Below, piece by piece: positions 1-23,237 of a stretch of DNA of 32,464 nt. Below the pieces are notes generated by a model. It was not told where the DNA came from. It did no database searches and was given only the letters and a program-made list of their open reading frames with translations. Made by a program: the position numbers and the translations under genes. Position 1 is the first letter of the stretch, and each line of letters opens with the position of its first letter. This DNA is from Spirosomataceae bacterium. Its GTDB lineage: Bacteria > Bacteroidota > Bacteroidia > Cytophagales > Spirosomataceae. The stretch covers positions 1 through 32,464 of the forward strand of contig JAKONH010000449.1 of assembly GCA_022702045.1 (NCBI GenBank), given 5' to 3'.

Positions 1-893
1 ATCACAATATCACTTTGCCAGAGTTTATTCCATTCGGCACGATGGCGGGTCAGTAGTCGCTCGGTGCGTTCAAGCGCAGCAAACAGCGTCAGGCGTTCGG
101 CTTCGTTGTGCGGATCAGCCGTATGAGCGGTCGAGGATACCGAGCCAACAACACTGAACCGGTAAGTTTCGCCAGCTTTCAGTCGCTTCTTGAACTTGGC
201 CAGGTGCATATTATAATCCCAGTCTTCGTGAATTACATCAGGCTCCTGCCCGTGCGGTTCGTCGAAAATAAAGCTGGTGGATGCGGCTACAGTATGCCGC
301 CCGGTCGGGCTTTTGGCGACGGACGTCAGCAGACGAATGGTTACGTGTGAGCGGTCGATCTCGGAATACAGGTTTTTGACTTCCCGCAGGTTGTCGGGCG
401 TTTCGATAACGCTGGCAGGCATGATCTCACAGTCTTTCTTCGCTGTGATTTCCATCATCGTCAGTTCGGAGAAAGGCAAATGGCGCAGCGCCATCATCGT
501 TTGCCGTACACTGACTTTATCTTTGTAATCGAACGTCGTTGTCAGCGCGGCTTTCTGCATATCAAGCGTCTGTCGGTAGTTGCTGATATCCTTAGGCCCA
601 ACGCGCGTACCATCAACGTCGAGATTTATGTTGGCGAAGTTGAACACCTTCAGGATGTTCGACACCCGCCCCCGGCCATAGGTGTCGAAGGCACCATTCA
701 ACACCACGTCTTTCACTTTCATCGGCTCCGGCGACGATACCAGACCGACCATCCCGTTGGCAACCGTGATACCGTAGTAATTAGCCGGGTTAATATTTTG
801 CCCAACAATAAGCCATTCGGGTGGAGCGTCCTGCGAATGCACGGACGAAGTAGCTGTGACAAGTAAGCCAGCCAGTAATAACGTTTTCTTCAT
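1..893 (-). CDS. GH65-type glycoside hydrolase, N-terminal part (cut by window edge)
   Basis: An open frame runs without a stop from an ATG at 893 to the window edge, giving about 297 residues; the C-terminal part lies outside. It starts with a Sec signal (MKKTLLLAGLLVTATSSVHS, cut before QD). The body reads as a beta-sandwich: a YYGITVANGMVGLVSSPEP stretch, DVVLNGAFDTYG, and near the edge ERTERLLTRHRAEWNKLWQ followed by SDIVI. An H..EW..LW..DI.I segment of this kind precedes the catalytic (alpha/alpha)6 barrel in family GH65 (maltose, trehalose and kojibiose phosphorylases; glucosyl-galactosyl-hydroxylysine glucosidase type). It is therefore probably a periplasmic enzyme acting on an alpha-glucosidic bond. 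Hydrolase or phosphorylase cannot be decided without the catalytic domain. It has its own promoter match (917-947) and is the last visible gene of a same-strand cluster. Confidence 0.72.
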   Translation of the reverse strand, partial: MKKTLLLAGLLVTATSSVHSQDAPPEWLIVGQNINPANYYGITVANGMVGLVSSPEPMKVKDVVLNGAFDTYGRGRVSNILKVFNFANINLDVDGTRVGPKDISNYRQTLDMQKAALTTTFDYKDKVSVRQTMMALRHLPFSELTMMEITAKKDCEIMPASVIETPDNLREVKNLYSEIDRSHVTIRLLTSVAKSPTGRHTVAASTSFIFDEPHGQEPDVIHEDWDYNMHLAKFKKRLKAGETYRFSVVGSVSSTAHTADPHNEAERLTLFAALERTERLLTRHRAEWNKLWQSDIV

Positions 894-1011: not shown

Positions 1012-1725
1012 TTAATTAGGACTGTACGTAATTTGAACTACGGCCGATTGAGATCCATCGACATTGGTCCGCTGCCAGCCAAAGGCTATGGGTAACTGTT
1101 TTGTGACATAATATTCGAGCCCCACTACGAGTTGCCCCTGTACGTGTTGTCCGGAAATCCAGTCGCCCAGCAGGTGTAGCTTTTTGAATATGCCGGCGTC
1201 GAAACCACCCTGAAAACCATAGGCTCGACCTTCGCCCAGGTAAGTCTGATTACCGACGTACCCACCCAGCGACCATTTGTAGCGCTGTTTTTTTAACGAA
1301 CCCGCCAATTGACCGTACCCATAGGATACGAAACGGGTTCGATGATTGGGCGACAGGTTAAATCCCACCTGCGTACCAAAGCCAATCTCCAGCTGCTCAG
1401 CGATAGGAAACGCTTTCTGCGCGTTGACCAGCACCAGCGGACTGTACGGCATCTGTGTGCTCGTATCGTTGCGGGAAATCTGCCGTTGATCGGGATCGTA
1501 AATCAGATTGTACAGATTCGCTCCAATCTCAACGTTGTTCCCTAATCCATAATTGACTGTTGTTGCCGAGTGGTAGGACGACTCGATGTTAAACTGCTGC
1601 TGAATCGCGAATTTGTGCTTATCAACGATGTCGGACGAGGGCACGTTAAAATACGTTTGCTGGCTAAAACAGGGTTTTGTCACCAGCAACGCGACGGCAC
1701 AGATAAGTCGGAATATATGCTTCAC
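1012..1725 (-). CDS. Small outer-membrane beta-barrel protein, unknown function
   Basis: Encodes 237 residues starting at a GTG (1725-1723); no ATG precedes it in a sensible position. A signal peptide (MKHIFRLICAVALLVTKPCF, cut near SQQ) is followed by alternating polar/hydrophobic strands with Tyr, Gly and Asn, for example VNYGLGNNVEIGANLYNLIY, VGFNLSP, YKWSLGGYVGNQTYLG and LVVGLEYYV, and a final VQITYSPN. This pattern fits a small transmembrane beta-barrel in the outer membrane. No enzymatic motif is visible and no specific family was recognised. It lies 71 bp after the haloperoxidase-like gene and 118 bp before the GH65-type gene, all on one strand. It could be a channel or a structural partner of the cluster, but this is inference. 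A palindrome sits directly against its start codon (1727-1751). Confidence 0.75.
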   Translation of the reverse strand: MKHIFRLICAVALLVTKPCFSQQTYFNVPSSDIVDKHKFAIQQQFNIESSYHSATTVNYGLGNNVEIGANLYNLIYDPDQRQISRNDTSTQMPYSPLVLVNAQKAFPIAEQLEIGFGTQVGFNLSPNHRTRFVSYGYGQLAGSLKKQRYKWSLGGYVGNQTYLGEGRAYGFQGGFDAGIFKKLHLLGDWISGQHVQGQLVVGLEYYVTKQLPIAFGWQRTNVDGSQSAVVQITYSPN

Positions 1726-1796: not shown

Positions 1797-3152
1797 CTAG
1801 CGTGCAGCGACAGCTTTGCGCCGGGTTGTAGCTTTCTGCACGACCCAGTTGCCTACTTTTTCGCCTTCTACCTGTCCGTTGTCCAGCGCCGACCGGTAGT
1901 GAATACCACCATATAGCCGGCTAATCGATGCTTCATTGGCAGCATCGCGGAACGACTTGAATGAGCGAACGCCATGACCGTATTTGTACTCGGTTGAATC
2001 GGTGAACGCAATGTTATCGCCCATCAGGTTAGTGAGTACCGTCGCTGCAGCTGTCGAGATTACGCTGTGCCCGCTTGGATACTCGGGGAAGGGCGGGGTT
2101 TGCAGGAAGGGCGTCCATTTCGGGTCCATCAGCTTATTGATGACTGTCTCCGGCCGGACCATGTTGCTGCGGTACTTCTCGTCCCAACATGAAATAAAGC
2201 CATCAGTCAGCGCAAACGACGTCAGCGCGTATGCTTCGACCATCTGCATCATCGACAGCTTTTTCTGCCGCCCAACCGTCTGCGCGATAGCCATCCAGTG
2301 ACCACCGGGGGTCATTTTTTTCGACGCATACATAACGTGCCCGGCTACGTTCATAACAAACGCATTGTCGTCCCAGAAATAAGCCGTCGCTTCCTGCTCT
2401 TTCGTCAGATTCTTGCCTATAGTGTACACCTCATCAACCTCCTTCCGGTACGGGTTCCCCGCAGTCATGTTGTATGGTAGTGGGCGCGTCGGCATGAACT
2501 GATTACAAGTGTCCATGGCCCAGCAACGCAGCTTATTCCACTGTGGCTCGGCCGCATCCATATAGGCAGGCGGGGTTGGTACCCAGGTTCCTTCGGCGTT
2601 CGTTACCGTGTGTTTAAACCCGCGCGTCTGTTTGTAATTGTCTTTGGCTGCGTAATCGAGCACGTGTTTGGCGACGGCTTCTCCATACGCCATCGAGCGT
2701 TCGTACACGTCGTCGGGAACACCATCCTGCTTGTATTTCTCGTAAAACGGCTTCTCAAATTCATCGTAAAACTCAACGCTAAACGTAAGTGCACGAGCAA
2801 CGGTCATGAAGGCGCGGGTACTGGCCAATGGGAAACAATACTGCTTACCAGCTTCAGGCTGCGGCCCATCACTAAACCGCTTCAGCTTACCCGCCAGCGA
2901 CTGATAATTCGGATCGAAGGGAGTGAGTGCTTCGTAACCCGCCAGGTTTGCATACGCATAAATCCTGCTTGCAACGGGTGGCGAAAAAATGTCGTGAACA
3001 ACGACTTCGGTCAGTTTATTCAGTGCGGCATTGTAGCGTTCAGTATCAGCGGCTTTAGCATTATATTCAGCCGGTGTCGACTCTTTCTGACATCCCGTCA
3101 GCAGCGCCAATGCTACAAACGGAAGGCTAATCCAATAGGCAATCGATTTCAT
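1797..3152 (-). CDS. Vanadium-dependent haloperoxidase / PAP2-superfamily lipoprotein
   Basis: 451 residues. A lipoprotein signal ends in the lipobox LLTGC (Cys21), so it is anchored in a membrane, likely the outer membrane. The PAP2/haloperoxidase active-site set is complete: K326-x6-R333-P334, then P359-S360-G361-H362, then S411-R412-x5-H418 (SRLYGGIH). In vanadium haloperoxidases these residues bind vanadate (Lys, Arg, Ser, Gly-His, Arg) and His ligates vanadium; in acid phosphatases the same set binds phosphate. The long helical N-terminal half (about residues 30-310), much larger than in small PAP2 phosphatases, favours the haloperoxidase-like group. The true reaction (halide or peroxide oxidation versus phosphate ester hydrolysis) cannot be told from sequence. 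It lies 155 bp downstream of the FG-GAP pair on the same strand, with a possible promoter at 3208-3215. Confidence 0.85.
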   Translation of the reverse strand: MKSIAYWISLPFVALALLTGCQKESTPAEYNAKAADTERYNAALNKLTEVVVHDIFSPPVASRIYAYANLAGYEALTPFDPNYQSLAGKLKRFSDGPQPEAGKQYCFPLASTRAFMTVARALTFSVEFYDEFEKPFYEKYKQDGVPDDVYERSMAYGEAVAKHVLDYAAKDNYKQTRGFKHTVTNAEGTWVPTPPAYMDAAEPQWNKLRCWAMDTCNQFMPTRPLPYNMTAGNPYRKEVDEVYTIGKNLTKEQEATAYFWDDNAFVMNVAGHVMYASKKMTPGGHWMAIAQTVGRQKKLSMMQMVEAYALTSFALTDGFISCWDEKYRSNMVRPETVINKLMDPKWTPFLQTPPFPEYPSGHSVISTAAATVLTNLMGDNIAFTDSTEYKYGHGVRSFKSFRDAANEASISRLYGGIHYRSALDNGQVEGEKVGNWVVQKATTRRKAVAAR

Positions 3153-3207
3153 ACGGTAGGACAGTTACGCAGCTGATTTCTGAGTATTTATCAGCTAGTA
3201 GAACTTA

Positions 3208-3215
3208 CAAAATTA
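3208..3215 (-). promoter_or_regulatory. Possible -7 box for the haloperoxidase-like gene
   Basis: TAATTTTG on the minus strand is a perfect match to the Bacteroidota -7 consensus TAnnTTTG, about 55 nt before the ATG at 3152. No TTG lies at the ideal 19-21 nt; the nearest is only 15 nt upstream. The call therefore rests on the -7 box alone. Confidence 0.3.
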
Positions 3216-3307
3216 ACGGAAAATACCAGACAAAAGGAAGATTTGCACGCGGTACTTTGTATCCCATTTTTGTCGTTAGCTAGCTCCTTTGTTTTGCCGG
3301 TACCGGT

Positions 3308-6300
3308 CTAGCGTCCTATGGCAAAAAGTTTGGGCCGGTCGTTATTAACTAGGTTAATCAGGTACTGGCGACCGCTGATCGTGATCGGACTGATCTGTTT
3401 GACTTCGCCACTGACGACATATCCACTCTTTGCTGCCGACAACGCCCGGAACCGCCCACGTCCATCGTTAGCCAGCACGATTCCCCGGCAGGCATCAATC
3501 ATCCCCAGTTGTGGTAGGAAGTGAGTGAAATTCCCCCCTAAAATGATATCTTTCCGGCCATCGGCATTGACGTCTTCGCAGGCAATAGCGTTAACGCATG
3601 ACAATTGCACAACCGATGGAAGCTGAGCGAGCGAAAATTGCCCGCTCCCCCCATTCAACGCCACAACCGATTTCCGATAGTTGACTGTTTTTACCTGCGC
3701 TTTTTCCAGTACATCAGGTGTAAACAGGTCCTGTATCGACTTTGTCGCGTAGTCGTGGTGCTTGAGAATCTTGGTTTTCAGAAATGGAAACTGATCGGCC
3801 ATTTCACGTTTCAGGAATATGGGCATGTCTTTGCCATCGATAGTCTTGGTCATGATTTTGTCGAGGATCCCATTCTTATCGAAGTCACTGACCCATAGTT
3901 TGAGGGGCGCCTGCTCCGATGCTTTGAGCGAGAAGTTTTCGCCGATATTACCCAGCACTAAGTCAGCTCGACTATCCCCGTTGACGTCCATCACGCCAAC
4001 GCTGCCCCAGAAACCGCTGACGTTTTCCAGACCAGTAGTGGTTTGGTGAAGTTTTCCGTCGTCAAAGCGTAACACCTGCGGAGCCATCCAGTCGCCAACA
4101 ACGACTAGTTCTTTCTTCCCGTCGCCCGTTAGGTCAGCCCAGGCCGCGTCGCGCACCATACCGATTTCCAACAGGTCGGGCGCTACCCGCTGTGTGACAT
4201 CGTCGAACTCGCCGTTGCCCACATTGTGATACAGAAAACTCTGCGGACTAACGCCGTATTGAAGCGGATAACTTCGGTTACCGACAAACAGATCCATTCT
4301 GCCGTCGTTGTCGTAATCATACGGCAGCACGACCGATGTATTCATGCCATTGGGCGGTAACGCACGGCCATTGAAGGTAAAACCACCCTTGCCATCGTTG
4401 ATATATAGCCGGTCTAGCCGGTCGCGCGGATCAGTTGCGGGTTCATTGCCACCACTACCCACGTACAGATCGAGGTCACCGTCGCCATCGGCATCAAAAA
4501 ACTGTGCAGCTGTATCTTCAAAGCCACTAAAGCGCGAAAAGAAAGCCTGCTCTGCTTTGGTAAATCCTGAACCGGTTTGCAGATACAGTTGTCCGCCCTG
4601 TCCTTTCGCACCGCATACGTATAGATCGGCCCGGCCATCGCCGTTAACGTCGCCAATAGCTGCTTTCGGCCCTTCCGACGACAGCTTCATTGGAATATTG
4701 CGCTCATTGAAAAAGTCTTCGTAGGCATCTTCAACATGCTTGTCTAATTGAATTGGCGATGCCGTCAGCAGGGCAGGTACAGCCATTCTGGGGGGCGTCG
4801 CAGGCATCACCTTTCCATCCTTAGCCGAGTACGTATACGTCTTTTTAGCAGCGACGTTTTTGATGACGCTAACCCGCTTATCGTACCAGGTGATACGTAC
4901 CGAATCCAGGTTGTCGAGATTTCCCAAACCGATTGTCTGTGTGTATTCAGCTCCCGACTGGAACCCCCTCGATGGCGCTACGTACCGGCTGAATATCTGC
5001 CCGCCACCAAACAGTTCTATGTTCGACCCAATAGCGTAGGTATTTTTATCGGCACCTGTTAGCCGGATACGAATGAAGTTGTTGGCCGGGTTTCGCTCGG
5101 CATGATTCTGATACACGAAACACGGCTGGTTGACATTGTTAACGACAAGATCGAGATCACCGTCGTTGTCGAGATCAGCATAGGCGGCCCCATTTGAGAA
5201 TGACGGATCGTCCAGCCCGAAATCAGCACCCCGCTCGTCGAACTTGAGGTTTTTCCGGTTGTAGAAAAAGTTGTTGGGGATGGGGTTCGACGGCATGTTC
5301 TTCACAATCTCATCGAACTGTTGTTTTTTTCCCGACAATGCCATCCGCTGTGCCAGATCGTTGGCGAAAAAGTCGATAAAATCTTGGTCAATGACGTCGT
5401 GGTAAATACCGTTGCAGACATAAATGTCGTTGTATCCGTCGTTGTCGGCATCAAACATCAATGCCCCCCAACTCCAGTCGCTGGCCGCTACATCAGCATA
5501 GCAGGCAATTTCGCTGAACGTTCCGTCCTGATTGTTTAGCTGCAGACAGTTTTGCTGTAGCTGATTATAAAATCCTTTTTCCCGCTTCAGGTTTGCCAGG
5601 TAATGGTTCTCGAATGAGGTTGTCGTCTTGAGCCGTTTCTCATCGCGAGGCAACATCTCGGTCGTAAAAATTTCGGGATGACCATCGTTGTTAATATCGG
5701 CCATGTCAGCTCCCATCGACGCGATGCTCAGGTGCTTCATCCGCGACTCAATGTCTTCTTTGAATGTCCCGTCGTGCTGATTGACATACAAGTAGTCTTT
5801 TTCGAAGAAGTCGTTTGATACGTAGATATCAGGATACTGATCATTGTTGACGTCGACAATGGTCACGCCCAGGCCAAAGCCAATCAGACTGCTGTAAATA
5901 TTAGCTTCCTTGCTAACGTCGTGATACACGCCATTGTCGTTGCGCATCAGTCGATCGCCACCACCTTTCAGAAAGTCTTTCACCGGCCAGTCTTCCGCCC
6001 GCAGATTGCGGCTACTTTCATAATTGACCGAGTTGACAGGAATAAAGCTGTTGTTTAGAATATAACAATCGAGGTCGCCGTCGAGGTCGTAGTCGAAAAA
6101 AGCGGTCTGGGTTGTATAGCCGTTTTCATTCAGCCCGTACTTCTTTGCCGATTCGGTAAACGTCAGATCGCCGTTGTTGATGTACAGGTCTTTCTCCTGC
6201 CCGACGTTTTTCTGGTAGCCGGCGTTACTCACGAAGATGTCGAGTCTACCGTCGTGGTTTACGTCGACCATCACCACGCCCGTTCCCCACTTACCTTTAC

Positions 6301-6643
6301 CGCCAACGCCAGCTTTGTCGGTGATATCTTCGAACTGCCAGTTTCCTTTGTTCAGATATAGCTTGTTCGGCCCCATGTTGGCCGTGAAGTAAATGTCGGG
6401 CAGACTATCGCCGTTGATATCGCCGACCGCTACGCCCCCACCGTTGTAAAAGTTACGGTAGTTGAAGATGTTAAAGTCTTCCCGATTCTTAACCGTGTTC
6501 TGAAAGTCGACACCAATCGACTCGTTGTCCATCCGCTCGAACAGCGTGTCTTTTTTCGCATTGGAGCAGCTGCTGATCAGCAACATACTGACCACGAGAT
6601 AGGCGTACAGCAGTAAGTTGCTGTGCTTATAAGTACAATTCAT
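3308..6643 (-). CDS. FG-GAP/VCBS repeat lipoprotein with ASPIC/UnbV domain (copy 1)
   Basis: 1111 residues. The lipoprotein signal ends at LISSC (Cys26). The mature protein is a string of FG-GAP/VCBS repeats carrying calcium-binding DxDxDG-like loops. I count 14 of them, for example DINGDSLPD (75), DVNHDGRLD (127), DYDLDGDLD (184), DLDNDGDLD (490) and DVNGDGRAD, DADGDGDLD further on. Between the two propeller halves, about residues 537-606, lies an ASPIC/UnbV domain (IGSNIELFGGGQIF ... SRGFQSGAEYTQTIGLG ... VRITWYD). Such repeats fold as beta-propellers that bind ligands or proteins; no catalytic residues are evident. It is a surface or periplasmic lipoprotein. It starts 47 bp after its paralogue (6691-9945) and is probably co-transcribed with it. 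A binding role for the SusC/D substrate is inference. Confidence 0.88.
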   Translation of the reverse strand: MNCTYKHSNLLLYAYLVVSMLLISSCSNAKKDTLFERMDNESIGVDFQNTVKNREDFNIFNYRNFYNGGGVAVGDINGDSLPDIYFTANMGPNKLYLNKGNWQFEDITDKAGVGGKGKWGTGVVMVDVNHDGRLDIFVSNAGYQKNVGQEKDLYINNGDLTFTESAKKYGLNENGYTTQTAFFDYDLDGDLDCYILNNSFIPVNSVNYESSRNLRAEDWPVKDFLKGGGDRLMRNDNGVYHDVSKEANIYSSLIGFGLGVTIVDVNNDQYPDIYVSNDFFEKDYLYVNQHDGTFKEDIESRMKHLSIASMGADMADINNDGHPEIFTTEMLPRDEKRLKTTTSFENHYLANLKREKGFYNQLQQNCLQLNNQDGTFSEIACYADVAASDWSWGALMFDADNDGYNDIYVCNGIYHDVIDQDFIDFFANDLAQRMALSGKKQQFDEIVKNMPSNPIPNNFFYNRKNLKFDERGADFGLDDPSFSNGAAYADLDNDGDLDLVVNNVNQPCFVYQNHAERNPANNFIRIRLTGADKNTYAIGSNIELFGGGQIFSRYVAPSRGFQSGAEYTQTIGLGNLDNLDSVRITWYDKRVSVIKNVAAKKTYTYSAKDGKVMPATPPRMAVPALLTASPIQLDKHVEDAYEDFFNERNIPMKLSSEGPKAAIGDVNGDGRADLYVCGAKGQGGQLYLQTGSGFTKAEQAFFSRFSGFEDTAAQFFDADGDGDLDLYVGSGGNEPATDPRDRLDRLYINDGKGGFTFNGRALPPNGMNTSVVLPYDYDNDGRMDLFVGNRSYPLQYGVSPQSFLYHNVGNGEFDDVTQRVAPDLLEIGMVRDAAWADLTGDGKKELVVVGDWMAPQVLRFDDGKLHQTTTGLENVSGFWGSVGVMDVNGDSRADLVLGNIGENFSLKASEQAPLKLWVSDFDKNGILDKIMTKTIDGKDMPIFLKREMADQFPFLKTKILKHHDYATKSIQDLFTPDVLEKAQVKTVNYRKSVVALNGGSGQFSLAQLPSVVQLSCVNAIACEDVNADGRKDIILGGNFTHFLPQLGMIDACRGIVLANDGRGRFRALSAAKSGYVVSGEVKQISPITISGRQYLINLVNNDRPKLFAIGR

Positions 6644-6690
6644 TGCTATTTTTTAACAAGGCGGTTACGGCGACCGCTGACTCTATACAC

Positions 6691-9600
6691 TTATCGTTTT
6701 GAAGCCAGTTTATGGCTTTGGTCATTCAATTGCGCGGCCTGGAGTTTACCAGCACAAAGGCCCATCAGTATTGTCTTGCCAAGTTGCTTTACATCGCGCA
6801 CATCACCACGTACGAACAGACCTGTTTTGTCGACGGGGATTTCAGCAAACTGCCAGTTGCGCTTATTACTCAGCACGATACCGTGGTTGGCATCGACTTT
6901 TCCGATGCGCAGTCGCATCCGGGAATTGTTACCCATCAGCAGCAGGTCAGTGGTGCCATTGTGGTCAAAATCGGTTGCAAGGATACCATATACAGGCGAT
7001 ACCTGCGCTATCATCGGCAACGAGTGGGGTATCAATGTACCATCCTTATTTTCCAGCACTAACGTGCGCAACTCATTGATTTCTCTGGTTTTGGCCTGTT
7101 TCAATTGCTGCTCATCGAAACAGTCTTCGATTGTCGCATCGGCATAGGCTTGATAAGTCGTAAACTTCTTTCGTAGCGAGGGCACCTGCTCACAGATTTC
7201 ATCGCGCGAATAAGCCGGGTAGCGTTTTCCGTCAATTAGGTAGCTCATAAAAAAATCCAGCGTACCATTCTGATCAAAGTCATCGTAGATCAGCGTAGCC
7301 GGCTGTTCGGCGGTTGCCCGCACAAACGTATTCAATCCCAGGTTACCGACAACCAGATCAAGATCGCCGTCGCCATCCAGATCGGCGGGTTGGATACGGT
7401 TCCACCAGCCGGCCAGCTCAGTATATTCTTTGCGAGTCCCAGCCTGCAGTTTACCCTTCTGGTTGAGCAACACCGTCACCGGCATCCACTCGCCAATGAT
7501 GACCAGATCAGGATATGTGTCCCGATTGATATCCAGTATAGCGGCATCGGTCAGCATACCCAGCCGCCCCAGCGATTGCCGAGCGAAGTGCGCTTTTCCA
7601 TCGTTGATAAGCAGGAAGCTTTCGTCATCGGCCGGGAAGCGAAAGGGCTTGATACCGCCCCCCACGAACAGGTCCAGATCACCGTCCCGGTCAATGTCGA
7701 GTGCTTTCACACAGCTTCCGTTGTCGGCTTCAGCAGGCAACAGTTGCGCCACATAGCCCGTCGGTGTGGCGAGCCATAACTGATCCTGCCGTCGGTCAGC
7801 CTCAGCCACACCATAGCCACCATTAGCCAGGTACAGATCCGGCTGACCATCACCATTCAAGTCGGCAAATAAGGCATCGTTGGTAGTCGCCTTTGTGAGG
7901 CCCGGCAATGGCAGTGCCTTAAACGAACCATCCGTCAGCTGTTGAAATAATTGCCCTGGCTGCTGCGCGTTTCCACTGATAAATACCAGTTTCTGTCCGT
8001 TCCGCTGACTTACCGCCAGTCGGGGACCAGCCGCTGAATACTGCGTCGGCAATAGTATCTGTCGGTCGAAGTTGCTGGTCGAATCGACCTTATGTACGAA
8101 ATCAGGGCCGGAGCCGGGAGAGAAAATCGCGTCTGTAGCTGTCTTGCTCGCAGGTTCATTCGCTGTAGCCTGCCGGTAACTCAGTGTCAGCGTCTGATCG
8201 GAATTGACGTTTTTCACCGTCTGTACCCGCCCATCCGGCCACCGAACCATTACACTGACTGTGCCCGGTTGATTACCCAGCCCAACCAGAAGATCACCGT
8301 GACTGCATGATTCATACCCCCGCGTTGGGTATCGCTCCTGGGTTTGCGTTCGAGCGTTCTGGCTGACCTCGACGGTGGCACCGATTCCAAACGGGTTATC
8401 CTGAGTACCAACCAGTTTTATAGTCAAATAATGCGTTGCTTTCGTTTCCCGTTCCTGATTCTGGTAAAGCCGGGCGGGTTCGTTCAGGTTATTTGTGATC
8501 AGGTCAAGATCACCGTCATTGTCCAGATCAGCGTAGGCGCATCCGTTCGATACAGTTGATTCGTCGAAGCCCCATGCTTTCTGCTCATTGGTAAACGTCA
8601 GATCCTGATTGTTCCGAAAAATGTAGTTTTTAGTCAGTGTCGTCGGCATCTGCTTGATCTGCTCCAATACGTTGTTACCCGGTGTCTGATCGGAGAACTT
8701 GACAAAATCAGCGTTGGTAAAATCCCGCAGAATGCCGTTGCTGACGAAAATATCTTTGTATCCATCGAGATCGAAATCAGCCAACAAAACGCCCCAGCTC
8801 CAGTCGGTAGCTGCCACGCCAGCTAGCTGACCGAGCTCGGCAAACTGCCCATCAGCCTGCTGAATTTGCAGCATATTGCGCATATTCTGATGCCAGAACC
8901 CATTGCGTAGCTGCGCCTGATACACGGTCCAGTTGTCGGGCCAAGGTAACAGCTTCTGTCGGGCGTTACTTTCCGGAAGCATGTCGAGCGTCATAATATC
9001 CGGGCGACTGTCGTTGTTCAGGTCAGCGACATCCATACCCATCGCCGAATACGACGTATGTTCAATTCGATTCCGTAGCTCGTCGCGAAACGTACCGTCT
9101 TTCTGGTTGATATAGAGATAGTCGTCTTCAACGAAATCGTTCGACACGTATACGTCCGGATAACCATCGTTGTTCAGGTCAGAGACTGATACGCCAAGTC
9201 CAAATCCCAGCGGATTTCCTTTGATACCTGCCTGCTCAGACACATCTACGAAAAGCGGAGTCGCTGTACTGCCGCCCTTACGACGTTCTACCGTCATGTT
9301 ACGAAACAGTTTATCGCCCGCGTTATAATCACGCTCGACACGCATAACAGCCGCTTCTTTCCGCTGGTAATTCTTCAGGTTATGATTGATCAGAAAACAG
9401 TCGAGGTCGCCATCGAGGTCGTAATCGAAGAAATTGGCCTGTACGGAATAGCCTGAGTCAGCCAGTCCATACTCGGCCGCCCGATCGGTGAAAGTCAAAT
9501 TTTTGTTGTTGATAAGTAGTTGATTTCGCCGTAGCGAATCCGGGCGCAGACCAGAATAGCATACATAAATATCAAGCCATCCATCGGCATTGACATCGGC

Positions 9601-9945
9601 CAGTGTTACGCCTGTCTTCCACCCCCCTACCCGTCCGCCAACGCCAGCTTTGTCGGTGACGTCAGCGAAGTGCATATCCCCTTTATTCAGGAATAGCTTA
9701 TTCCCCACCTGATTGCCGGTAAAAAATAGATCGACACGACCGTCGTTGTTTAGATCACCAGCCGCTACCCCGGCACCGTTGTAGAAATATTCGAACGACA
9801 GAATGTTCTCAGTCTCGGTCTCCTGTAATTGATTGGTAAACTGAACCCCCGTTTCTTCCGGATTTGTTTTTGTAAAGAGTGGCGTTCTCTGACTGCAAGC
9901 ATAAAATAGTACACTACTGAGCAGTACGGCGGGCCATAGTTTCAT
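6691..9945 (-). CDS. FG-GAP/VCBS repeat lipoprotein with ASPIC/UnbV domain (copy 2)
   Basis: 1084 residues, paralogue of the neighbouring 3308-6643 gene along its whole length. The lipoprotein signal is short (MKLWPAVLLSSVLFYAC, Cys17). I count 13 calcium-loop motifs, such as DLNNDGRVD (64), DVNADGWLD (117), DYDLDGDLD (174), DLNNDGYPD (256), DFDLDGYKD (390), DLDNDGDLD (474), DIDRDGDLD and DLDGDGDLD. An ASPIC/UnbV domain lies at about residues 520-590 (FGIGATVEV ... YPTRGYESCSHGDLLVGLG ... VMVRWPDGRV). Shared blocks with copy 1 include the YNGAGVAAGD/YNGGGVAVGD start, KAGVGG, FFDYDLDGDLDC, GFGLGV and ATDWSWG/ASDWSWG. It follows susD by 140 bp, with a strong terminator-like hairpin between and no obvious promoter, so it may depend on read-through from susCD. 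Confidence 0.88.
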   Translation of the reverse strand: MKLWPAVLLSSVLFYACSQRTPLFTKTNPEETGVQFTNQLQETETENILSFEYFYNGAGVAAGDLNNDGRVDLFFTGNQVGNKLFLNKGDMHFADVTDKAGVGGRVGGWKTGVTLADVNADGWLDIYVCYSGLRPDSLRRNQLLINNKNLTFTDRAAEYGLADSGYSVQANFFDYDLDGDLDCFLINHNLKNYQRKEAAVMRVERDYNAGDKLFRNMTVERRKGGSTATPLFVDVSEQAGIKGNPLGFGLGVSVSDLNNDGYPDVYVSNDFVEDDYLYINQKDGTFRDELRNRIEHTSYSAMGMDVADLNNDSRPDIMTLDMLPESNARQKLLPWPDNWTVYQAQLRNGFWHQNMRNMLQIQQADGQFAELGQLAGVAATDWSWGVLLADFDLDGYKDIFVSNGILRDFTNADFVKFSDQTPGNNVLEQIKQMPTTLTKNYIFRNNQDLTFTNEQKAWGFDESTVSNGCAYADLDNDGDLDLITNNLNEPARLYQNQERETKATHYLTIKLVGTQDNPFGIGATVEVSQNARTQTQERYPTRGYESCSHGDLLVGLGNQPGTVSVMVRWPDGRVQTVKNVNSDQTLTLSYRQATANEPASKTATDAIFSPGSGPDFVHKVDSTSNFDRQILLPTQYSAAGPRLAVSQRNGQKLVFISGNAQQPGQLFQQLTDGSFKALPLPGLTKATTNDALFADLNGDGQPDLYLANGGYGVAEADRRQDQLWLATPTGYVAQLLPAEADNGSCVKALDIDRDGDLDLFVGGGIKPFRFPADDESFLLINDGKAHFARQSLGRLGMLTDAAILDINRDTYPDLVIIGEWMPVTVLLNQKGKLQAGTRKEYTELAGWWNRIQPADLDGDGDLDLVVGNLGLNTFVRATAEQPATLIYDDFDQNGTLDFFMSYLIDGKRYPAYSRDEICEQVPSLRKKFTTYQAYADATIEDCFDEQQLKQAKTREINELRTLVLENKDGTLIPHSLPMIAQVSPVYGILATDFDHNGTTDLLLMGNNSRMRLRIGKVDANHGIVLSNKRNWQFAEIPVDKTGLFVRGDVRDVKQLGKTILMGLCAGKLQAAQLNDQSHKLASKR

Positions 9946-10030
9946 TGTGAAAGCAACAACAGACGAGCGTAATATATCGCAGCGAGGCTGGTCTTTTGCT
10001 TATTTTAATTCATACAGGTCTTTAAACTAT

Positions 10031-10060
10031 AAACAGCAGCCTGCTGGCAGGCTGCTGTTT
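10031..10060 (-). terminator. Strong hairpin after susD (intrinsic terminator or attenuator)
   Basis: Perfect 13-bp inverted repeat: AAACAGCAGCCTG (10031-10043) and CAGGCTGCTGTTT (10048-10060), with a 4-nt loop. It begins 26 nt after the susD stop. On the minus strand the stem ends in TTT and is followed by ATAGTTTAAA, a weak U-rich tail. It probably ends most susCD transcripts, leaving partial read-through into the FG-GAP genes. Confidence 0.7.
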
Positions 10061-10085
10061 ACGTAACGTAGCTGATAGTTAACTA

Positions 10086-11663
10086 TTATAGGTAACCGGG
10101 GTTCTGAGGAGCCAGGTTTGGGTTACTGTCGATAGCCTGCTGCGGGAATGGGAACAGAACAGCAGTTGCAGGCGATGTTGCAGACCGTTGGTCAACCGGT
10201 TGCAAGAATGTACCAAAGCGAATTTGGTCACTCCGGCGCCAGCCTTCCCAGTACAGTTCGCGGCCACGTTCTGCCAGCAGACCCGTCAGATCAAGGCTGC
10301 CCAGGGTTGATGCACCACGGGTAGAACGCAGGTTGTTTACGATAGCCAGTGCTGTCTGACCCTGCGAATCCGTACCACCCCGCAAGATCGCTTCAGCTTT
10401 CATCAGCATTACGTCAGAGTACCGCAGGAACACGTAATCGTTGGACGGTGCATCAACGGCACCAGGCTGTGGCAGGTACTTGATTACCCGGATACCCTGT
10501 ACTTCGTTGGCGAAACCGAGGTTGACGTTTGGGGTAAACACCAGCGGGTTACCGCTACGGTCGGTAGCCGCAACGGCAGTTGTTGTATTTGGCTTAACTA
10601 CATACTGCTGTCCCACTAGGAAACCCGCGTTCAAACCCGTCTTCGATGTCAGATCTGATGGTTGTGAAGTCAAACGTTCATCCGACTTCTCAAAGCTATT
10701 GTAGAAGTCAGCCAGCGTCGTAAAGCCGTTCCATGCGTTTACATATTGATTATAGTGCAACGTCATATAGTAGCGGTTCCGTACGTTACCAGGCTGTGCA
10801 GCCGAGCTGTTTGCAATCGTAAAGATTAGCTCTTTCGACAGTTGGTCGTTGTTCCAGTGGAAGCTATCGAAATATTTCCCTTTCGCTGTCAGCGCAAATT
10901 TATTCGACGCAATAACCTGATTCGAGAAATACACGGCCGAGTCCATGTCTGACTTAACAAATGTATACGGACCCGCCGGGCTCGACGAATTCGTATAGAC
11001 CGCTTTGTTCAGGTACATTTTGGCAAGCATTGTTGCAGCCGCTTCCTTCGTCGCTACATTCTGTGCAGAACCGGATGCCAGATTGTTGAACGCATACCGC
11101 AGATCACCAATTACGAAATTGGTAGCTTCTGTACGGCTTAGTACACGTGGATTAGCATCAGCCGCATCCGTTACTTGCCTAACCGGAACCCGGCCGAACA
11201 AGTCAACAATGTACGAGGTAAAAAAACCCCGCAGGAAGCGTGCTTCTGCCGCCCGCTGCGTACTTGATCCCGCTACAGACAAAGCCTGAGTAGACCGGAA
11301 AGCACCTGTGTTCAGATCGTTCCAGGCTTCCAGAATACGCTGGTGCGAAGCATCCCATGTATGCTGGTGCAGTTTCCGCCACGTGCCGAAGTCATCCCAG
11401 TCAGTACCCCGTGTTGGTCCCATCATTTCATCAGAGGGGTGCTCTTCCATAGCATACGTACCACCCTGGTTGGTAGCGATGTTGTTCAGAATCGCATAAG
11501 CACCCTGCAATGTTGCTTGCGGGTCGAGTGGCACAGCATCCTGAGACGCCGACGTTGACGACAATTGACCAAATACCTTGTCGTCCAGATTGGTACAGCT
11601 GATTGTGCTCATCATGAGAGCAGCACCCAGCACACCTACTGTATTATATTTTGAGAAGTTCAT
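10086..11663 (-). CDS. SusD/RagB-family outer-membrane nutrient-binding lipoprotein
   Basis: 525 residues. The lipoprotein signal ends in STISC (Cys23) and continues TNLDDKVFG. Family features include the N-terminal segment with AYAILNN and WNDLNTGAF, the SusD-type helical repeat region (RAAEARFLRGFF; EAAATMLAKMYLNKA), the late block FLRYSDVMLMKAEAILRGG with LAIVNNLRSTRGAS, ERGRELYWEGWRRSDQIRFG, and the closing FPFPQQAIDSNPNLAPQNPGY. SusD proteins form the lid of the SusC transporter and capture the substrate at the cell surface. Length is normal for the family. It follows susC by 108 bp, with a perfect 16-bp hairpin between them, and is followed by a terminator-like hairpin. No substrate can be assigned. 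Confidence 0.95.
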   Translation of the reverse strand: MNFSKYNTVGVLGAALMMSTISCTNLDDKVFGQLSSTSASQDAVPLDPQATLQGAYAILNNIATNQGGTYAMEEHPSDEMMGPTRGTDWDDFGTWRKLHQHTWDASHQRILEAWNDLNTGAFRSTQALSVAGSSTQRAAEARFLRGFFTSYIVDLFGRVPVRQVTDAADANPRVLSRTEATNFVIGDLRYAFNNLASGSAQNVATKEAAATMLAKMYLNKAVYTNSSSPAGPYTFVKSDMDSAVYFSNQVIASNKFALTAKGKYFDSFHWNNDQLSKELIFTIANSSAAQPGNVRNRYYMTLHYNQYVNAWNGFTTLADFYNSFEKSDERLTSQPSDLTSKTGLNAGFLVGQQYVVKPNTTTAVAATDRSGNPLVFTPNVNLGFANEVQGIRVIKYLPQPGAVDAPSNDYVFLRYSDVMLMKAEAILRGGTDSQGQTALAIVNNLRSTRGASTLGSLDLTGLLAERGRELYWEGWRRSDQIRFGTFLQPVDQRSATSPATAVLFPFPQQAIDSNPNLAPQNPGYL

Positions 11664-11717
11664 TTTGTCTTTTATTGATAAAACGTGTACAAAACCCGTT
11701 TTGATTTACGACGGTGT

Positions 11718-11759
11718 GATTAAACTTTCCTGAGGAAAATTCTTCAGGAAAGTTTAATC
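11718..11759 (-). other. Perfect 16-bp hairpin between susC and susD
   Basis: GATTAAACTTTCCTGA (11718-11733) pairs exactly with TCAGGAAAGTTTAATC (11744-11759) around a 10-nt loop. It starts 12 nt after the susC stop. On the minus strand it is followed by ACACCGTCG, not a U-tract, so it is not a canonical terminator. It may protect or process the susC mRNA 3' end, or set the susC to susD ratio. Confidence 0.6.
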
Positions 11760-11771
11760 GATTTGAATACG

Positions 11772-14700
11772 TTAGAAGCCTACGTTCAAACCCAGCGTGA
11801 AGGTACGTGGTGTTGGGTATGGCGTGTAATCGATACCCAGCGATGGTACATTGTTCAATACTTTCACTGTGTTCACGTTGGGGTTCAGGCCTGAGTATGG
11901 CGTCAGGATGAACAGATTCTGACCAGTCAGCGAAACGTTCAGCGTTTTGGCAAATCCGCCTTGTGGCAGATCGAACGTATAACCAATGTTCAGGTTCGTC
12001 AGCCGCAGGAAATCACTCTTCTCAATGAAGCGCGACGACACTGAACCTGGGTTCAGCCCGTTCTCTGCCGAGTTTGCTGCTGCATAATCTACATTACGAC
12101 CGTTTTTCAGCGAGCCTTTCAGGAAAAGAGCGTTAGACGTATTGTTGTATAGATAACCGCCTACCTGACCATCGAAGAATACGCTGGCGTTAAAACGACC
12201 ATAGGTGAAGTTGTTGGTCAGACCAAGACGGGCTTTTGGGAAGGGGCTACCCTGGTAAGACGAGGCACCACCATCAGCATAGGTCGAATAACCATTGGCA
12301 TCGTAGCCGGTAAACGTCGGCGTGAAGAAGGCAAACGGAGGGTAACCGTTCGTCACCAACTGTGCATAAGCGCCTGAGAGACCCTGGCCATCGATTGCCC
12401 CAACCGTTACGGTTGTACCGATGTTCTTCACTTCATTTTTCAGCGTTGTGAAGTTAGCCTGGATTTCCCACGCGAACTTCTGAGTCTGAACTGCCTGGAA
12501 GTTCAACGATAGCTCGACGCCTGTGCTAACAATTGCACCTGGCAGGTTGACGAACTTATATTGTACCGGCGCAGGCTGTGCATAGAAAACCTGAAACAGC
12601 GTGTTGGTTGCTTCACGGTGGTAGTAATCGATCGAACCACCCAGACGACCCTTCAGAATCGAGAAGTCAAGACCAACACCAGCAGTTGCATTCTGCTCCC
12701 ACTTCAGATCCGGGTTCGGGTTATTCTGCTGTGTTTGCGATCCATCGGCGTTACGTGTGAAGATGATCTTCGACGCACCACCAGCGAAATCCTGGTTACC
12801 CGTAATACCATAGTTAGCCCGCAGTTTCAGATCATTGAAGATATTCTTCGGAATGAAACTTTCCTGCGACAGACGCCAGGCACCGGCAATCGATGGAAAT
12901 ACACCGTACTTGTTATTGACACCAAAGCGCGATGAACCATCGGCCCGAACCGTTACCGTTACCAGGTATTTTTCCAGGAAGTTGTAGTTCAGACGGCCGA
13001 AGTACGACTGCAGGTCGTTTTGGCTACGTGATGAGCCTGAACCAAACGAAGTGATAGCAGCTCCCGTAGCAGGGTTTTTAGTAGCAGCAGCACCTAGATT
13101 ATCAAGGTAGCTGATGTCCGCTTCGTTATAAGGGAAGTTACCCGCAACCTGATAGTTTGTACGCGTACCGAAGGTCTGGTACGAGAATCCTAACAATCCT
13201 TCCAGTGTACCAGGACCAACAGTTCCGTTGTAATTCGCTGTGTACTCGACCAGTTTCGACAACCGGGTCAGGTTATTAACGTACGCGTAGCCACCCAAAC
13301 CAGTCGTTGGATCAGCGAAGATATTGGCACTGGCAACGTTCGGAATGATCGTTCCTGTCAACTGTGCGTTCAGGCGCGAGTCGATGCTTGTACTCCGCGT
13401 TTGTACCGAGTTGTCAACACCGAAGTTAGCCTTCAACGATACGCTGGGCAATACCTGCCACGTAGCACTGGCGTTGGCCAGCGAACGGTTCGTCACGCCA
13501 TTGTCTTTGTAATATTCCAGGATAGCAGCCGGGTTACGGAAACCACCCCCCGATAATTGATAATAGGTACCATCAGCATTACGTACGGGATATGTTGGGT
13601 TGGCCGAAATCATGGCCCCAATGATATTACCGTTGTAACCAGCGTTGTTGTTGTTCAGCGTGTACTGATCCTGAATGTTCGACGTAGTAGCATTCACAGC
13701 CAGCGTTACCTTGTGGTTGAACAGATCATGCGATGCGTTGATACGACCTGTTATCCGTTTCTGACCTGTTTTGTCGATAACCCCCTGCTGATCCTGATAA
13801 CCCAGCGAGAAGTTATAACGTGTGGTTTCCGTACCACCACCGAAGCTGGCGTTGTAAATCTGCGATACTGACGTGCGGAACAAAATATCCTGCCAGTCAG
13901 TATTACCACCAGCGTTTACAGCACCATCCGACGCATTACCGCCAGCAGCGGTAACCCCGGCAATAAAGTCGCTGGTTTTCAGCAGATTATACCGTTTCAA
14001 CGGACTGGCAATAGCTGTAGACGCTGACAGATTCAGTTGCGATTGGCCGACTTTACCTTTGCGCGTTGTAATCAGAATTACACCGTTAGCACCCCGAGCA
14101 CCGTAGATAGCGGCAGCCGACGCATCTTTCAGGACAGAAATGTTTTCGATGTCGTTCGGGTTTAGGAACGCCAGTGGGTTACGGGGCGTCGAGGTGCCAC
14201 CCGCACCAACATCCACACCACCACTATTGAAATCACCACCGTCAAGTGGGACACCATCGACAACGTACAGCGGGTTGTTACCAGCCCGCAACGACGTAGC
14301 GCCACGAATCTGCACATTGATACCGGCACCGGGTTCACCACTGGCAGGCGTAATCTGCACACCGGCAACCCGGCCCTGTAACAGTTGCTCAGGCGAAGCG
14401 ATAACCCCTTTGTTAAACTCCTTCGTGCTCAGCGTCGATACACTACCGGTTGCGTCTTTTACTTTCTGCGTACCATAGCCAACAACGACAACTTCGTTCA
14501 GTGTCTTGTTATCTTCGACCAAACTAGCGTCGACGGTTGTGCGCGAACCAACGGCTATCTCCTGCGACGTGTAGCCAATCGAGCTAAACACCAGCGTAGA
14601 ACCACCCGGTACGTTGGCCAACTGATAGGTACCGTTTCCATCAGTCGTCGTTCCTTTTGTGGTTCCCTTAATTTGTACCGTAACCCCTGGCAGACCGGCA

Positions 14701-14873
14701 CCGGTGGCATCGATCACTTTACCCGAGATTGTCGTACCCTGCGCAAACGCAGCTTGTGTGCCCAGCAAGGCACACAGCAGAACAACCAGCATACCTAGTC
14801 GGGCCAGGATCGTGCTGGTTTGCGTACACCGAACAGCGTCGGCGCGACCTACTAAGTAGGATTTGTCCATCAT
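11772..14873 (-). CDS. SusC/RagA-family TonB-linked outer-membrane transporter
   Basis: 1033 residues from ATG 14873; a second ATG follows at once. The N-terminus is long, with a hydrophobic signal core at about residues 25-45 (ARLGMLVVLLCALLGTQAAF, then AQ). Next come a carboxypeptidase-like regulatory domain (TTISGKVIDATGAGLPGVTV ... GTTTDGNGTYQL ... VFSSIGYTSQEI), a TonB-box-like segment (LNEVVVVGYGTQ), a plug domain (LLQGRVAGVQI, IRGATSL, PLYVVDGVPLDG, SVLKDASAAAIYGARGANGV) and a 22-strand-type barrel ending PRTFTLGLNVGF. There is no STN domain and no adjacent sigma/anti-sigma pair, so induction by trans-envelope signalling is not suggested here. It is the first gene of the cluster and has a consensus promoter (15056-15087). 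It imports a substrate captured by SusD, powered by TonB. Confidence 0.96.
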   Translation of the reverse strand: MMDKSYLVGRADAVRCTQTSTILARLGMLVVLLCALLGTQAAFAQGTTISGKVIDATGAGLPGVTVQIKGTTKGTTTDGNGTYQLANVPGGSTLVFSSIGYTSQEIAVGSRTTVDASLVEDNKTLNEVVVVGYGTQKVKDATGSVSTLSTKEFNKGVIASPEQLLQGRVAGVQITPASGEPGAGINVQIRGATSLRAGNNPLYVVDGVPLDGGDFNSGGVDVGAGGTSTPRNPLAFLNPNDIENISVLKDASAAAIYGARGANGVILITTRKGKVGQSQLNLSASTAIASPLKRYNLLKTSDFIAGVTAAGGNASDGAVNAGGNTDWQDILFRTSVSQIYNASFGGGTETTRYNFSLGYQDQQGVIDKTGQKRITGRINASHDLFNHKVTLAVNATTSNIQDQYTLNNNNAGYNGNIIGAMISANPTYPVRNADGTYYQLSGGGFRNPAAILEYYKDNGVTNRSLANASATWQVLPSVSLKANFGVDNSVQTRSTSIDSRLNAQLTGTIIPNVASANIFADPTTGLGGYAYVNNLTRLSKLVEYTANYNGTVGPGTLEGLLGFSYQTFGTRTNYQVAGNFPYNEADISYLDNLGAAATKNPATGAAITSFGSGSSRSQNDLQSYFGRLNYNFLEKYLVTVTVRADGSSRFGVNNKYGVFPSIAGAWRLSQESFIPKNIFNDLKLRANYGITGNQDFAGGASKIIFTRNADGSQTQQNNPNPDLKWEQNATAGVGLDFSILKGRLGGSIDYYHREATNTLFQVFYAQPAPVQYKFVNLPGAIVSTGVELSLNFQAVQTQKFAWEIQANFTTLKNEVKNIGTTVTVGAIDGQGLSGAYAQLVTNGYPPFAFFTPTFTGYDANGYSTYADGGASSYQGSPFPKARLGLTNNFTYGRFNASVFFDGQVGGYLYNNTSNALFLKGSLKNGRNVDYAAANSAENGLNPGSVSSRFIEKSDFLRLTNLNIGYTFDLPQGGFAKTLNVSLTGQNLFILTPYSGLNPNVNTVKVLNNVPSLGIDYTPYPTPRTFTLGLNVGF

Positions 14874-22930: not shown

Positions 22931-23237
22931 AATTCGTTCGTAACCAGTTAACAGCAGATGCAACAAGTCTCTTGTTGAGTAAACATACATATTCGTCTAA
23001 CTTTTATCTTATTTTTTCTAACTAATGCATTAAAATAGTTAGTAGGCGTGTTTATTATGACTGACAGTCAGTAATTTACAACTACATAAACGGTGACAAA
23101 ACGAGTCTGCAACACCAAGCTACGCATCGGTGCACTAGCCTATCTTCTTCATGTTCATCCTGAGTGAGTTAGTATATCTGCCCGGGTACGCTTCTTTTTA
23201 CTATGTTTCTGACCCCCTTATCTAAATAATAGACGCT
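22931..23237. promoter_or_regulatory. Divergent regulatory region with two inverted repeats
   Basis: This 307-bp region between the TonB receptor and the Tat-exported oxidoreductase has no gene. It holds CAACAAG-TCT-CTTGTTG (22961-22977), a perfect 7-bp inverted repeat 31 nt before the receptor ATG, and ACTGAC-A-GTCAGT (23060-23072), a perfect 13-bp palindrome in mid-region. The first could be a leader hairpin or operator; the second looks like a dimeric operator. TATGTTTA on the minus strand near 22984 and TATGTTTC on the plus strand near 23203 each miss the -7 consensus by one base and lack a good TTG partner, so no promoter is claimed. Confidence 0.45.

What the first reader, a model, noticed from the sequence alone, without database searches (positions are those of the whole stretch)
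1797..14873. SusC/D transport cluster with paired FG-GAP/ASPIC lipoproteins and a haloperoxidase instead of glycan enzymes
Seen: susC, susD, two roughly 1100-residue calcium-loop beta-propeller lipoproteins and a vanadium-haloperoxidase/PAP2 lipoprotein lie on one strand with no other gene between. Known: SusCD pairs usually travel with glycosidases, lyases, sulfatases or peptidases. Inference: this may be a capture-and-oxidise or capture-and-dephosphorylate system for a non-classical substrate (halogenated or phenolic matter, phosphorylated polymer), with the FG-GAP proteins as extra surface binders. Similar associations may exist in other Bacteroidota but I cannot confirm a described function.
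Basis: partly seen in the sequence, partly recalled or inferred. Interest (0 to 1): 0.8.

Follow-up and report, generated by a model that had tools for sequence, protein, structure and literature searches.

The report
Surface capture-and-oxidise gene cluster (Bacteroidota)
Next to a nutrient importer this bacterium carries two large calcium-loop surface-type proteins and a vanadium enzyme of the iodide-oxidising kind; similar gene sets recur in many Bacteroidota and on a plasmid of another phylum, which suggests a little-studied way of catching matter at the cell surface and treating it chemically.

Summary
In detail: SusC, SusD, two ~1,100-aa FG-GAP/ASPIC proteins and a PAP2-fold lipoprotein lie on the minus strand (14873-1797), gaps 47-155 bp. 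The PAP2 protein is of vanadium-haloperoxidase (VHPO) lineage: closest solved relative Zobellia iodoperoxidase 4cit, active-site motifs kept, family profile finds VHPO-type chains and no phosphatase in the PDB. 'Instead of glycan enzymes' is wrong: the run continues into a 237-aa gene and a GH65 gene cut by the contig end. The set is conserved: 18 of 20 fetched orthologue loci keep SusC-SusD-FG(2 or more)-VHPO. In a phylum sample an FG gene lies directly upstream of 46 of 83 VHPO genes (about 0.1 expected), and all 58 VHPO genomes also have ASPIC genes (83 of 238 others do). Linkage is not universal: 30 of 83 have no FG in their run. A near-identical copy of the characterised iodoperoxidase lies behind three FG genes. 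A Gemmatimonadota plasmid carries SusC-SusD-FG-VHPO. Within the genus the VHPO stays constant while the SusCD/FG block is exchanged. I read it as a surface capture-and-oxidise locus with an interchangeable capture module; substrate and halide are unknown. The open-library papers I could list do not describe the association.

The parts
11772..14873 (-). SusC/RagA TonB-dependent outer-membrane transporter (1033 aa), first gene of the run
   Evidence: TIGR04056 684 bits, TIGR04057; Plug, TonB_dep_Rec, CarbopepD_reg_2
10086..11663 (-). SusD/RagB lid (525 aa)
   Evidence: PF07980 E 1.2e-17; one of 32 SusD genes found in the genome (33 rows, two from one gene)
6691..9945 (-). FG1: FG-GAP / UnbV_ASPIC protein (1084 aa), 11 DxDxDG-type calcium-loop motifs, probable lipoprotein
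   Evidence: PF13517 E 1.9e-70, PF07593 E 2.7e-18; loops; CRTAC1 9etn E 1.8e-5
3308..6643 (-). FG2: FG-GAP / UnbV_ASPIC lipoprotein (1111 aa), 9 calcium-loop motifs
   Evidence: PF13517 E 1.3e-76, PF07593 E 1e-13; loops, lipobox-like start; CRTAC1 9etn E 1.2e-15; integrin alpha-V propeller by profile
1797..3152 (-). Vanadium-haloperoxidase-type PAP2 lipoprotein (451 aa)
   Evidence: PDB 4cit E 1.1e-122; K326 R333 S360 G361 H362 R412 H418 kept; profile A3 hits 12 PDB sequences, 10 named vanadium halo/chloroperoxidase plus NapH1 and NapH3
1012..1725 (-). 237-aa ORF with signal-like start; no Pfam or NCBIfam match; recognised in 5 of 20 orthologue loci
3..893 (-). GH65 N-terminal half, cut by the contig end; full orthologue L040:1543-3582 resembles F. 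johnsoniae alpha-1,2-glucosidase FjGH65A
   Evidence: PF03636; 7fe3 E 8.6e-235 for the L040 copy; 7FE3 is FjGH65A

Best explanation
A conserved outer-membrane capture-and-oxidise locus. Shown by sequence: one same-strand run of SusC, SusD, two calcium-loop FG-GAP/ASPIC proteins, a VHPO-lineage lipoprotein, a 237-aa protein and a GH65 relative, with the FG-VHPO core recurring widely. Inferred: the FG-GAP/ASPIC propellers bind a polymer or particle at the cell surface in a calcium-dependent way and present it to the SusCD importer. The vanadate-loaded VHPO, tethered beside them, uses peroxide to oxidise a halide (iodide or bromide more likely than chloride, from its kinship with the Zobellia enzyme), and the hypohalite attacks the bound matter or what shields it. 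SusCD takes up released pieces and GH65, where present, removes alpha-1,2-linked glucose. The capture block (SusCD/FG) is exchanged between lineages while the VHPO stays constant, so the chemistry is fixed and the target varies.
For: Five-gene run. VHPO lineage; active-site positions invariant in A3 except G361, nearly invariant. Gene order SusC-SusD-FG(2 or more)-VHPO in 18 of 20 fetched orthologue loci. Phylum sample: FG directly upstream of 46 of 83 VHPOs, in the same run in 53, FG plus SusC/D in 24; chance about 0.1 of 83, assuming 900 genes per Mb. All 58 VHPO genomes among 296 (own genome included) have ASPIC. A protein I count as 443 of 450 identical to 4cit is encoded behind three FG genes (L126 and L262). 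Gemmatirosa plasmid SusC-SusD-FG-VHPO-FG-SusC-SusD. Constant VHPO, exchanged capture block. Seven loci have an extra gene between SusD and FG; the copy read carries a CAVCH heme motif and weak, sub-threshold cytochrome and Cu-monooxygenase matches.
Against: 30 of 83 phylum-sample VHPOs, 21 of 38 in hand-picked paralogue loci and 54 of 80 in named genomes (some on short contigs; 30 of the 51 with 9 kb or more upstream) have no FG gene in their run. SusC/D is anywhere in the stretch for only 37 of 83. The Zobellia-like locus has no SusCD directly upstream. Adhaeribacter swui carries a 53%-identical VHPO on a plasmid with no FG gene in the stretch. No clear peroxide-making oxidase was seen among the 40 ORFs scanned; the FAD-oxidase-domain gene beside SusC reads as a YdiJ-like dehydrogenase. 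VHPO relatives need not oxidise halides (NapH3, recalled). FG genes also stand with other enzymes (GH29 in L083). No activity, vanadate, expression or substrate data exist for the window protein and no structure model could be made.
Confidence: 0.5

Rival explanations
1. A glycan-utilisation locus for an alpha-glucoside or trehalose/kojibiose-type sugar in which the VHPO-like protein plays only a side role, such as coping with peroxide or halogenated defence compounds met on the food.
For: GH65 in the run in 9 of 20 orthologue loci and 11 of 83 phylum VHPOs; trehalase, MFS and ROK genes in some loci; a Zobellia iodoperoxidase gene (vIPO3) was up on a brown alga against alginate, reported beside stress genes (PMC9296495, passages).
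Against: FG, not GH65, is the commonest neighbour: 46 of 83 directly upstream. GH65 is full-length in 8 of 20 orthologue loci, a fragment in 2 and not found in 10 (one a contig end), while the VHPO is kept in all 20 at 79-97% identity.
Confidence: 0.22
2. Surface defence or competition: VHPO makes hypohalite that kills or disarms neighbours (or quenches signals), and FG-GAP/SusCD bind the cells or their debris for uptake.
For: Lipobox-like starts are common in the families (VHPO 144 of 215, FG 121 of 183, SusD 54 of 75, control ORFs 97 of 882); general chemistry of VHPOs (recalled).
Against: No immunity, secretion or toxin gene was recognised among the proteins scanned; a nutrient importer is the first gene.
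Confidence: 0.13
3. Capture and dephosphorylation: the PAP2 protein is a phosphatase for a phosphorylated polymer or sugar phosphate.
For: Pfam names it PAP2; the two enzyme types share fold and active-site plan (recalled); GH65 beside it would suit a sugar phosphate.
Against: The family profile finds 12 PDB sequences, VHPO-type, and no phosphatase at E up to 0.001. The Asp four residues after the last active-site His, usual in PAP2 phosphatases (recalled), is replaced in 204 of the 209 family members with the motif (221 examined), window included. This is a weak control: it was readable in only one of the genome's four small PAP2 proteins (L264, Asp), and the genome's VHPO-like L267 has Asp too.
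Confidence: 0.1

Closest known systems
Polysaccharide utilisation loci / SusCD utilisomes of Bacteroidota
   Same: SusC-SusD pair first in the run, large surface-type proteins after it, a glycosidase-family gene (GH65) at the end
   Different: The conserved catalytic gene is of vanadium-haloperoxidase type; FG-GAP/ASPIC proteins stand where other binders are usual; many copies show no carbohydrate enzyme nearby
Zobellia galactanivorans vanadium iodoperoxidase (PDB 4cit/4usz)
   Same: Best solved relative, near full-length match E 1.1e-122, same active-site residues; a near-identical copy lies behind three FG genes
   Different: 45% identity to that copy; the residue before SGH is Pro, not Thr; the Zobellia-like locus lacks adjacent SusCD
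Cartilage acidic protein 1 (CRTAC1) / ASPIC-UnbV proteins
   Same: FG-GAP repeats plus ASPIC domain
   Different: The bacterial proteins are about 1,100 aa with a second FG-GAP half that matches integrin alpha-V propellers by profile
Flavobacterium johnsoniae GH65 alpha-1,2-glucosidase FjGH65A (7FE3)
   Same: Near full-length match of the L040 orthologue; both catalytic Glu positions are Glu in the printed alignment (residue numbers from the PMC8626586 abstract, offset of three inferred)
   Different: The window copy is cut by the contig end; activity untested

Membership tests
Vanadium haloperoxidase (V-IPO lineage) | K-X6-RP, SGH and SR-X5-H vanadate-binding motifs (roles recalled) | tested here: met
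   KYRSNMVRP, PSGHS, SRLYGGIH present; columns invariant or nearly so in A3
Vanadium haloperoxidase (V-IPO lineage) | Kinship to a proven VHPO rather than to phosphatases | tested here: met
   4cit E 1.1e-122; 12 profile hits: 10 named vanadium halo/chloroperoxidase, 2 NapH1/NapH3, no phosphatase
Vanadium haloperoxidase (V-IPO lineage) | Vanadate-dependent halide oxidation with peroxide | not testable with these tools
   needs purified protein
PAP2 phosphatase | SR-X5-H-X3-D, Asp four residues after the last His (recalled) | tested here: not met
   window has Ala; 5 of 209 family members have Asp; small PAP2 L264 has Asp; weak discriminator, since VHPO-like L267 has Asp
SusCD pair | SusC/RagA TonB receptor followed by SusD/RagB | tested here: met
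   TIGR04056, TIGR04057, PF07980
Polysaccharide utilisation locus | SusCD with linked carbohydrate-active enzymes | tested here: inconclusive
   GH65 is the third gene after FG2 in the window; in the run in 9 of 20 orthologue loci, not in 11
Polysaccharide utilisation locus | Induction by and growth on a glycan | not testable with these tools
   no expression data
ASPIC/UnbV (CRTAC1-like) proteins | FG-GAP repeats plus UnbV_ASPIC domain | tested here: met
   both proteins above the curated cut-offs

The most novel reading that the evidence does not exclude
An oxidative counterpart of the polysaccharide utilisation locus: a surface machine in which calcium-dependent FG-GAP/ASPIC propellers and SusCD form an exchangeable capture head on a fixed halide-oxidising vanadium enzyme, able to move between phyla. 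It could be the genetic basis of the glucose-, oxygen-, calcium- and peroxide-dependent iodine uptake reported for Arenibacter C-21, whose genome has at least five genes homologous to the Zobellia iodoperoxidase (PMC5064120, whole text). Its relative A. palladensis has SusD, an opposite-strand gene, then FG, FG and VHPO (L249). Glucosidases such as GH65 would feed glucose to an oxidase that makes the peroxide; that oxidase was not found beside the genes.
Probability: 0.2. Interest if true: 0.85.

Novelty: new variant of a known kind. Interest (0 to 1): 0.62.

Why it matters
To my knowledge neither the role of bacterial iodoperoxidases nor that of bacterial ASPIC/UnbV proteins is understood. 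Repeated linkage of the two, often with a nutrient importer, across Bacteroidota and on a Gemmatimonadota plasmid, gives both a shared, testable setting: halide oxidation as part of food capture. It would add an oxidative branch to how Bacteroidota attack organic matter and bears on iodine and halocarbon cycling.

Tried and rejected
Phosphatase reading: weakened by the profile search and, less strongly, by the missing Asp. Chance adjacency: rejected. The Fisher test (p 9e-23) and the binomial do not correct for shared ancestry; on a 207-row VHPO tree the FG label needs 31 changes (17 forced by starred branches; shuffled mean 69), so it is clustered yet gained or lost many times. That tree is a FastTree with long branches; I use it for no more than this. 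The run rule (same strand, gaps up to 600 bp) misses cases: L085 (FG ends 743 bp before the VHPO; coordinates) and L102, where the VHPO was lost in ORF picking but SusD-FG-FG-VHPO is there. Without that rule FG is anywhere in the stretch for 61 of 83. One search scored at most 5 candidates a genome, so VHPO counts per genome are lower bounds. A family-level tally typed summed to 60 instead of 58 and is not used.

Literature: ten searches of the open PMC library, nine of them bearing on the association (52 was on GH65). Searches returned no paper; some searches listed only 20 of 64, 20 of 194 and 10 of 92. No listed paper links VHPO with SusCD or FG-GAP in the title or the part of the abstract shown; only two hold both 'haloperoxidase' and 'polysaccharide utilization' in that spelling, and neither describes the link in the passages seen. 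Subscription papers, among them the Zobellia V-IPO paper of 2014 and the Arenibacter uptake paper of 2007, are not held, so the association may be noted there.

Rows dropped: of 87 VHPO places, the 4 of the window's own genome and G054 (already L067) were left out and the 2 weakest (G178:C95, G103) not fetched; 80 were fetched. Of 34 other same-genus genomes with an orthologue, 20 loci were fetched and G011. The loci were picked by hand.
Full report
What is there. The window is contig C297 of a fragmented genome (5.34 Mb, 646 contigs, 82.9% complete). On the minus strand lie SusC (11772-14873), SusD (10086-11663), two FG-GAP/ASPIC proteins (6691-9945 and 3308-6643) and a PAP2-fold protein (1797-3152), with gaps of 108, 140, 47 and 155 bp (domains). 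The run goes on with a 237-aa ORF and the first half of a GH65 gene that the contig end cuts. No tRNA and no Rfam match at gathering level is present.

The PAP2 protein is of haloperoxidase kind. Its best solved relative is the Zobellia vanadium iodoperoxidase 4cit (E 1.1e-122, residues 14-441). The positions K326, R333, S360, G361, H362, R412 and H418 are kept in the aligned family (that these are the vanadate ligands is recalled). A profile of 23 family members finds 12 PDB sequences at E up to 0.001: 10 named vanadium haloperoxidase or chloroperoxidase, and NapH1 and NapH3, which I recall as VHPO relatives, NapH3 with a halide-free reaction. No phosphatase is among them. The Asp usual four residues after the last His in PAP2 phosphatases (recalled) is Ala here and is absent in 204 of 209 relatives with the motif, out of 221 examined. 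As a control it was readable in one of four small PAP2 proteins of the genome (L264, Asp), but VHPO-like L267 also has Asp, so it is a weak sign. Activity is not shown.

The FG proteins. Both match FG-GAP_3 and UnbV_ASPIC and carry 11 and 9 calcium-loop motifs. Single-sequence searches find cartilage acidic protein 1; a profile of 59 members finds it again, and integrin alpha-V propellers for the second half. Binding of anything is inferred.

Conservation in the genus. 34 of 35 other same-genus genomes have a VHPO at 78% identity or more, one of them partial. Of 20 such loci fetched, 18 show SusC-SusD-FG(2 or more)-VHPO, one is a short contig with FG-FG-VHPO and one (L047) has VHPO without FG. 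GH65 shares the run in 9 of 20; it is full-length in 8 loci, a fragment in 2 (one beyond the run rule) and not found in 10, one of these a contig end. In the own genome the four VHPOs at E up to 1e-50 all stand beside an ASPIC gene, and 5 of the 8 ASPIC genes belong to such loci.

Module exchange. Against the window, the VHPO is 79-97% identical across the 20 loci and GH65 80-95% in the nine where BLAST aligned it (one over 122 residues only). SusC, SusD and the best FG matches are 30-43% identical in 15 of 20 loci, among them G030, the closest by VHPO (97%). In G020 they are 80-96%. In G008 and G013 SusC, SusD and FG1 are 57-72% and the best FG2 match 43-44%. L045 has only FG (41-43%) and L047 none. 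The capture block has therefore been replaced at this site while the VHPO stayed. G020 is a 3-contig genome, so the combination is not an artefact of the window's assembly alone.

Across the phylum. In 296 genomes drawn evenly (own genome included), 58 have a VHPO at E up to 1e-50, and all 58 also have an ASPIC gene, against 83 of the other 238. In 79 of 80 fetched loci the script found 83 VHPO genes: FG directly upstream in 46, in the same run in 53, FG plus SusC/D in 24, GH65 in 11; FG is anywhere in the stretch for 61 and SusC/D for 37. About 0.1 of 83 is expected by density, assuming 900 genes per Mb. L102, missed by the script, has SusD-FG-FG-VHPO. In the hand-picked paralogue loci FG shares the run of 17 of 38 VHPOs; the distant ones L091-L098 have none, 0 of 8, though distant L176 and L177 do. 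In 80 named-genome loci chosen by similarity to one VHPO the figure is lower: FG in the run in 26 of 80, and in 21 of the 51 with 9 kb or more upstream. On a 207-row tree the linkage changes 31 times.

Named cases. A protein 443 of 450 identical (my count of the printed alignment) to the Zobellia enzyme is encoded behind three FG genes in G238, whose next gene upstream is an opposite-strand symporter, not SusCD. Arenibacter palladensis (L249), Allomuricauda taeanensis (L256) and Algoriphagus hitonicola (L242) carry FG-FG-VHPO; the second has SusC-SusD directly upstream, the first SusD beyond one opposite-strand gene. Gemmatirosa kalamazoonensis plasmid 2, of another phylum, has SusC-SusD-FG-VHPO-FG-SusC-SusD on one strand, with one weak opposite-strand SusC match over the second FG. 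A Hymenobacter volaticus plasmid has SusC-SusD-FG, a further ORF, then a VHPO in two ORFs. An Adhaeribacter swui plasmid has a VHPO with no FG in the stretch.

What it does. The most constant parts are a halide-oxidising type enzyme and calcium-loop surface-type proteins; importer and sugar enzymes come and go. I commit to capture and oxidation at the surface, followed by import (0.5). A sugar locus with a side-role VHPO (0.22), surface defence (0.13) and dephosphorylation (0.1) remain. In seven loci a further gene lies between SusD and FG; the copy examined has a CAVCH heme motif and sub-threshold cytochrome and Cu-monooxygenase matches, perhaps a second redox part. No clear peroxide source was found among the 40 ORFs scanned. 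The Arenibacter C-21 phenotype (iodine uptake needing glucose, oxygen and calcium, with a peroxide-generating system able to replace glucose; PMC5064120, whole text) fits the parts list but has not been tied to these genes.

GH65. The full copy in L040 matches 7fe3 nearly end to end. 7FE3 is FjGH65A, an alpha-1,2-glucosidase that cleaves kojibiose (PMC8626586, abstract and passages). Both catalytic Glu positions are Glu in the printed alignment, with a numbering offset of three that I inferred.

Novelty. Each part is a known family, and plasmid records already name such proteins vanadium-dependent haloperoxidase. The association and its module exchange were not seen in the listings of the open-library searches; key subscription papers could not be read. 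I rate it a new variant of a known kind.

Noticed in passing
window 3-893 (-); L040:1543-3582: GH65 gene after the VHPO, full-length in 8 of 20 orthologue loci and a fragment or not found in the rest; the orthologue resembles an alpha-1,2-glucosidase and may mark a kojibiose-type substrate.
   Followed up: partly
L039-L058 against window 1797-14873: SusC/SusD/FG block replaced at one site while the VHPO stays nearly constant between close relatives.
   Followed up: partly
L075-L078, L113, L115, L118 (e.g. L076:8676-10019): A ~450-aa gene between SusD and FG; the L076 copy has a CAVCH heme motif and weak Cu-monooxygenase and cytochrome matches.
   Followed up: partly
L126:7925-8821, L067:7567-8466, L132 and eight other loci: A ~300-aa gene (GyrI-like C-terminal part by Pfam on the L067 copy, just under the cut-off), directly after the VHPO in eight loci and upstream of it in three; function unknown.
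   Followed up: partly
L120, L127, L135, L142: A second, longer VHPO-like gene (513-552 aa) close behind the first, forming a separate deep branch of the tree.
   Followed up: no
L180 (Gemmatirosa kalamazoonensis plasmid 2): SusC-SusD-FG-VHPO in Gemmatimonadota, followed by a further FG gene and SusCD pair, suggesting transfer between phyla.
   Followed up: partly
window 15363-18323 (+): FAD-oxidase/4Fe-4S gene (YdiJ-like, under the NCBIfam cut-off) divergent from SusC; an opposite-strand FAD-oxidase-domain family gene lies at the same side in 12 of 20 orthologue loci.
   Followed up: no
window 19955-22990 (-): A second SusC-like TonB receptor (CarbopepD, Plug, barrel) with no SusD gene beside it.
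   Followed up: no
L083 (own genome, contig C105): SusC-SusD-FG followed by an alpha-L-fucosidase with F5/8 C domains: FG proteins also accompany an ordinary glycan enzyme.
   Followed up: partly
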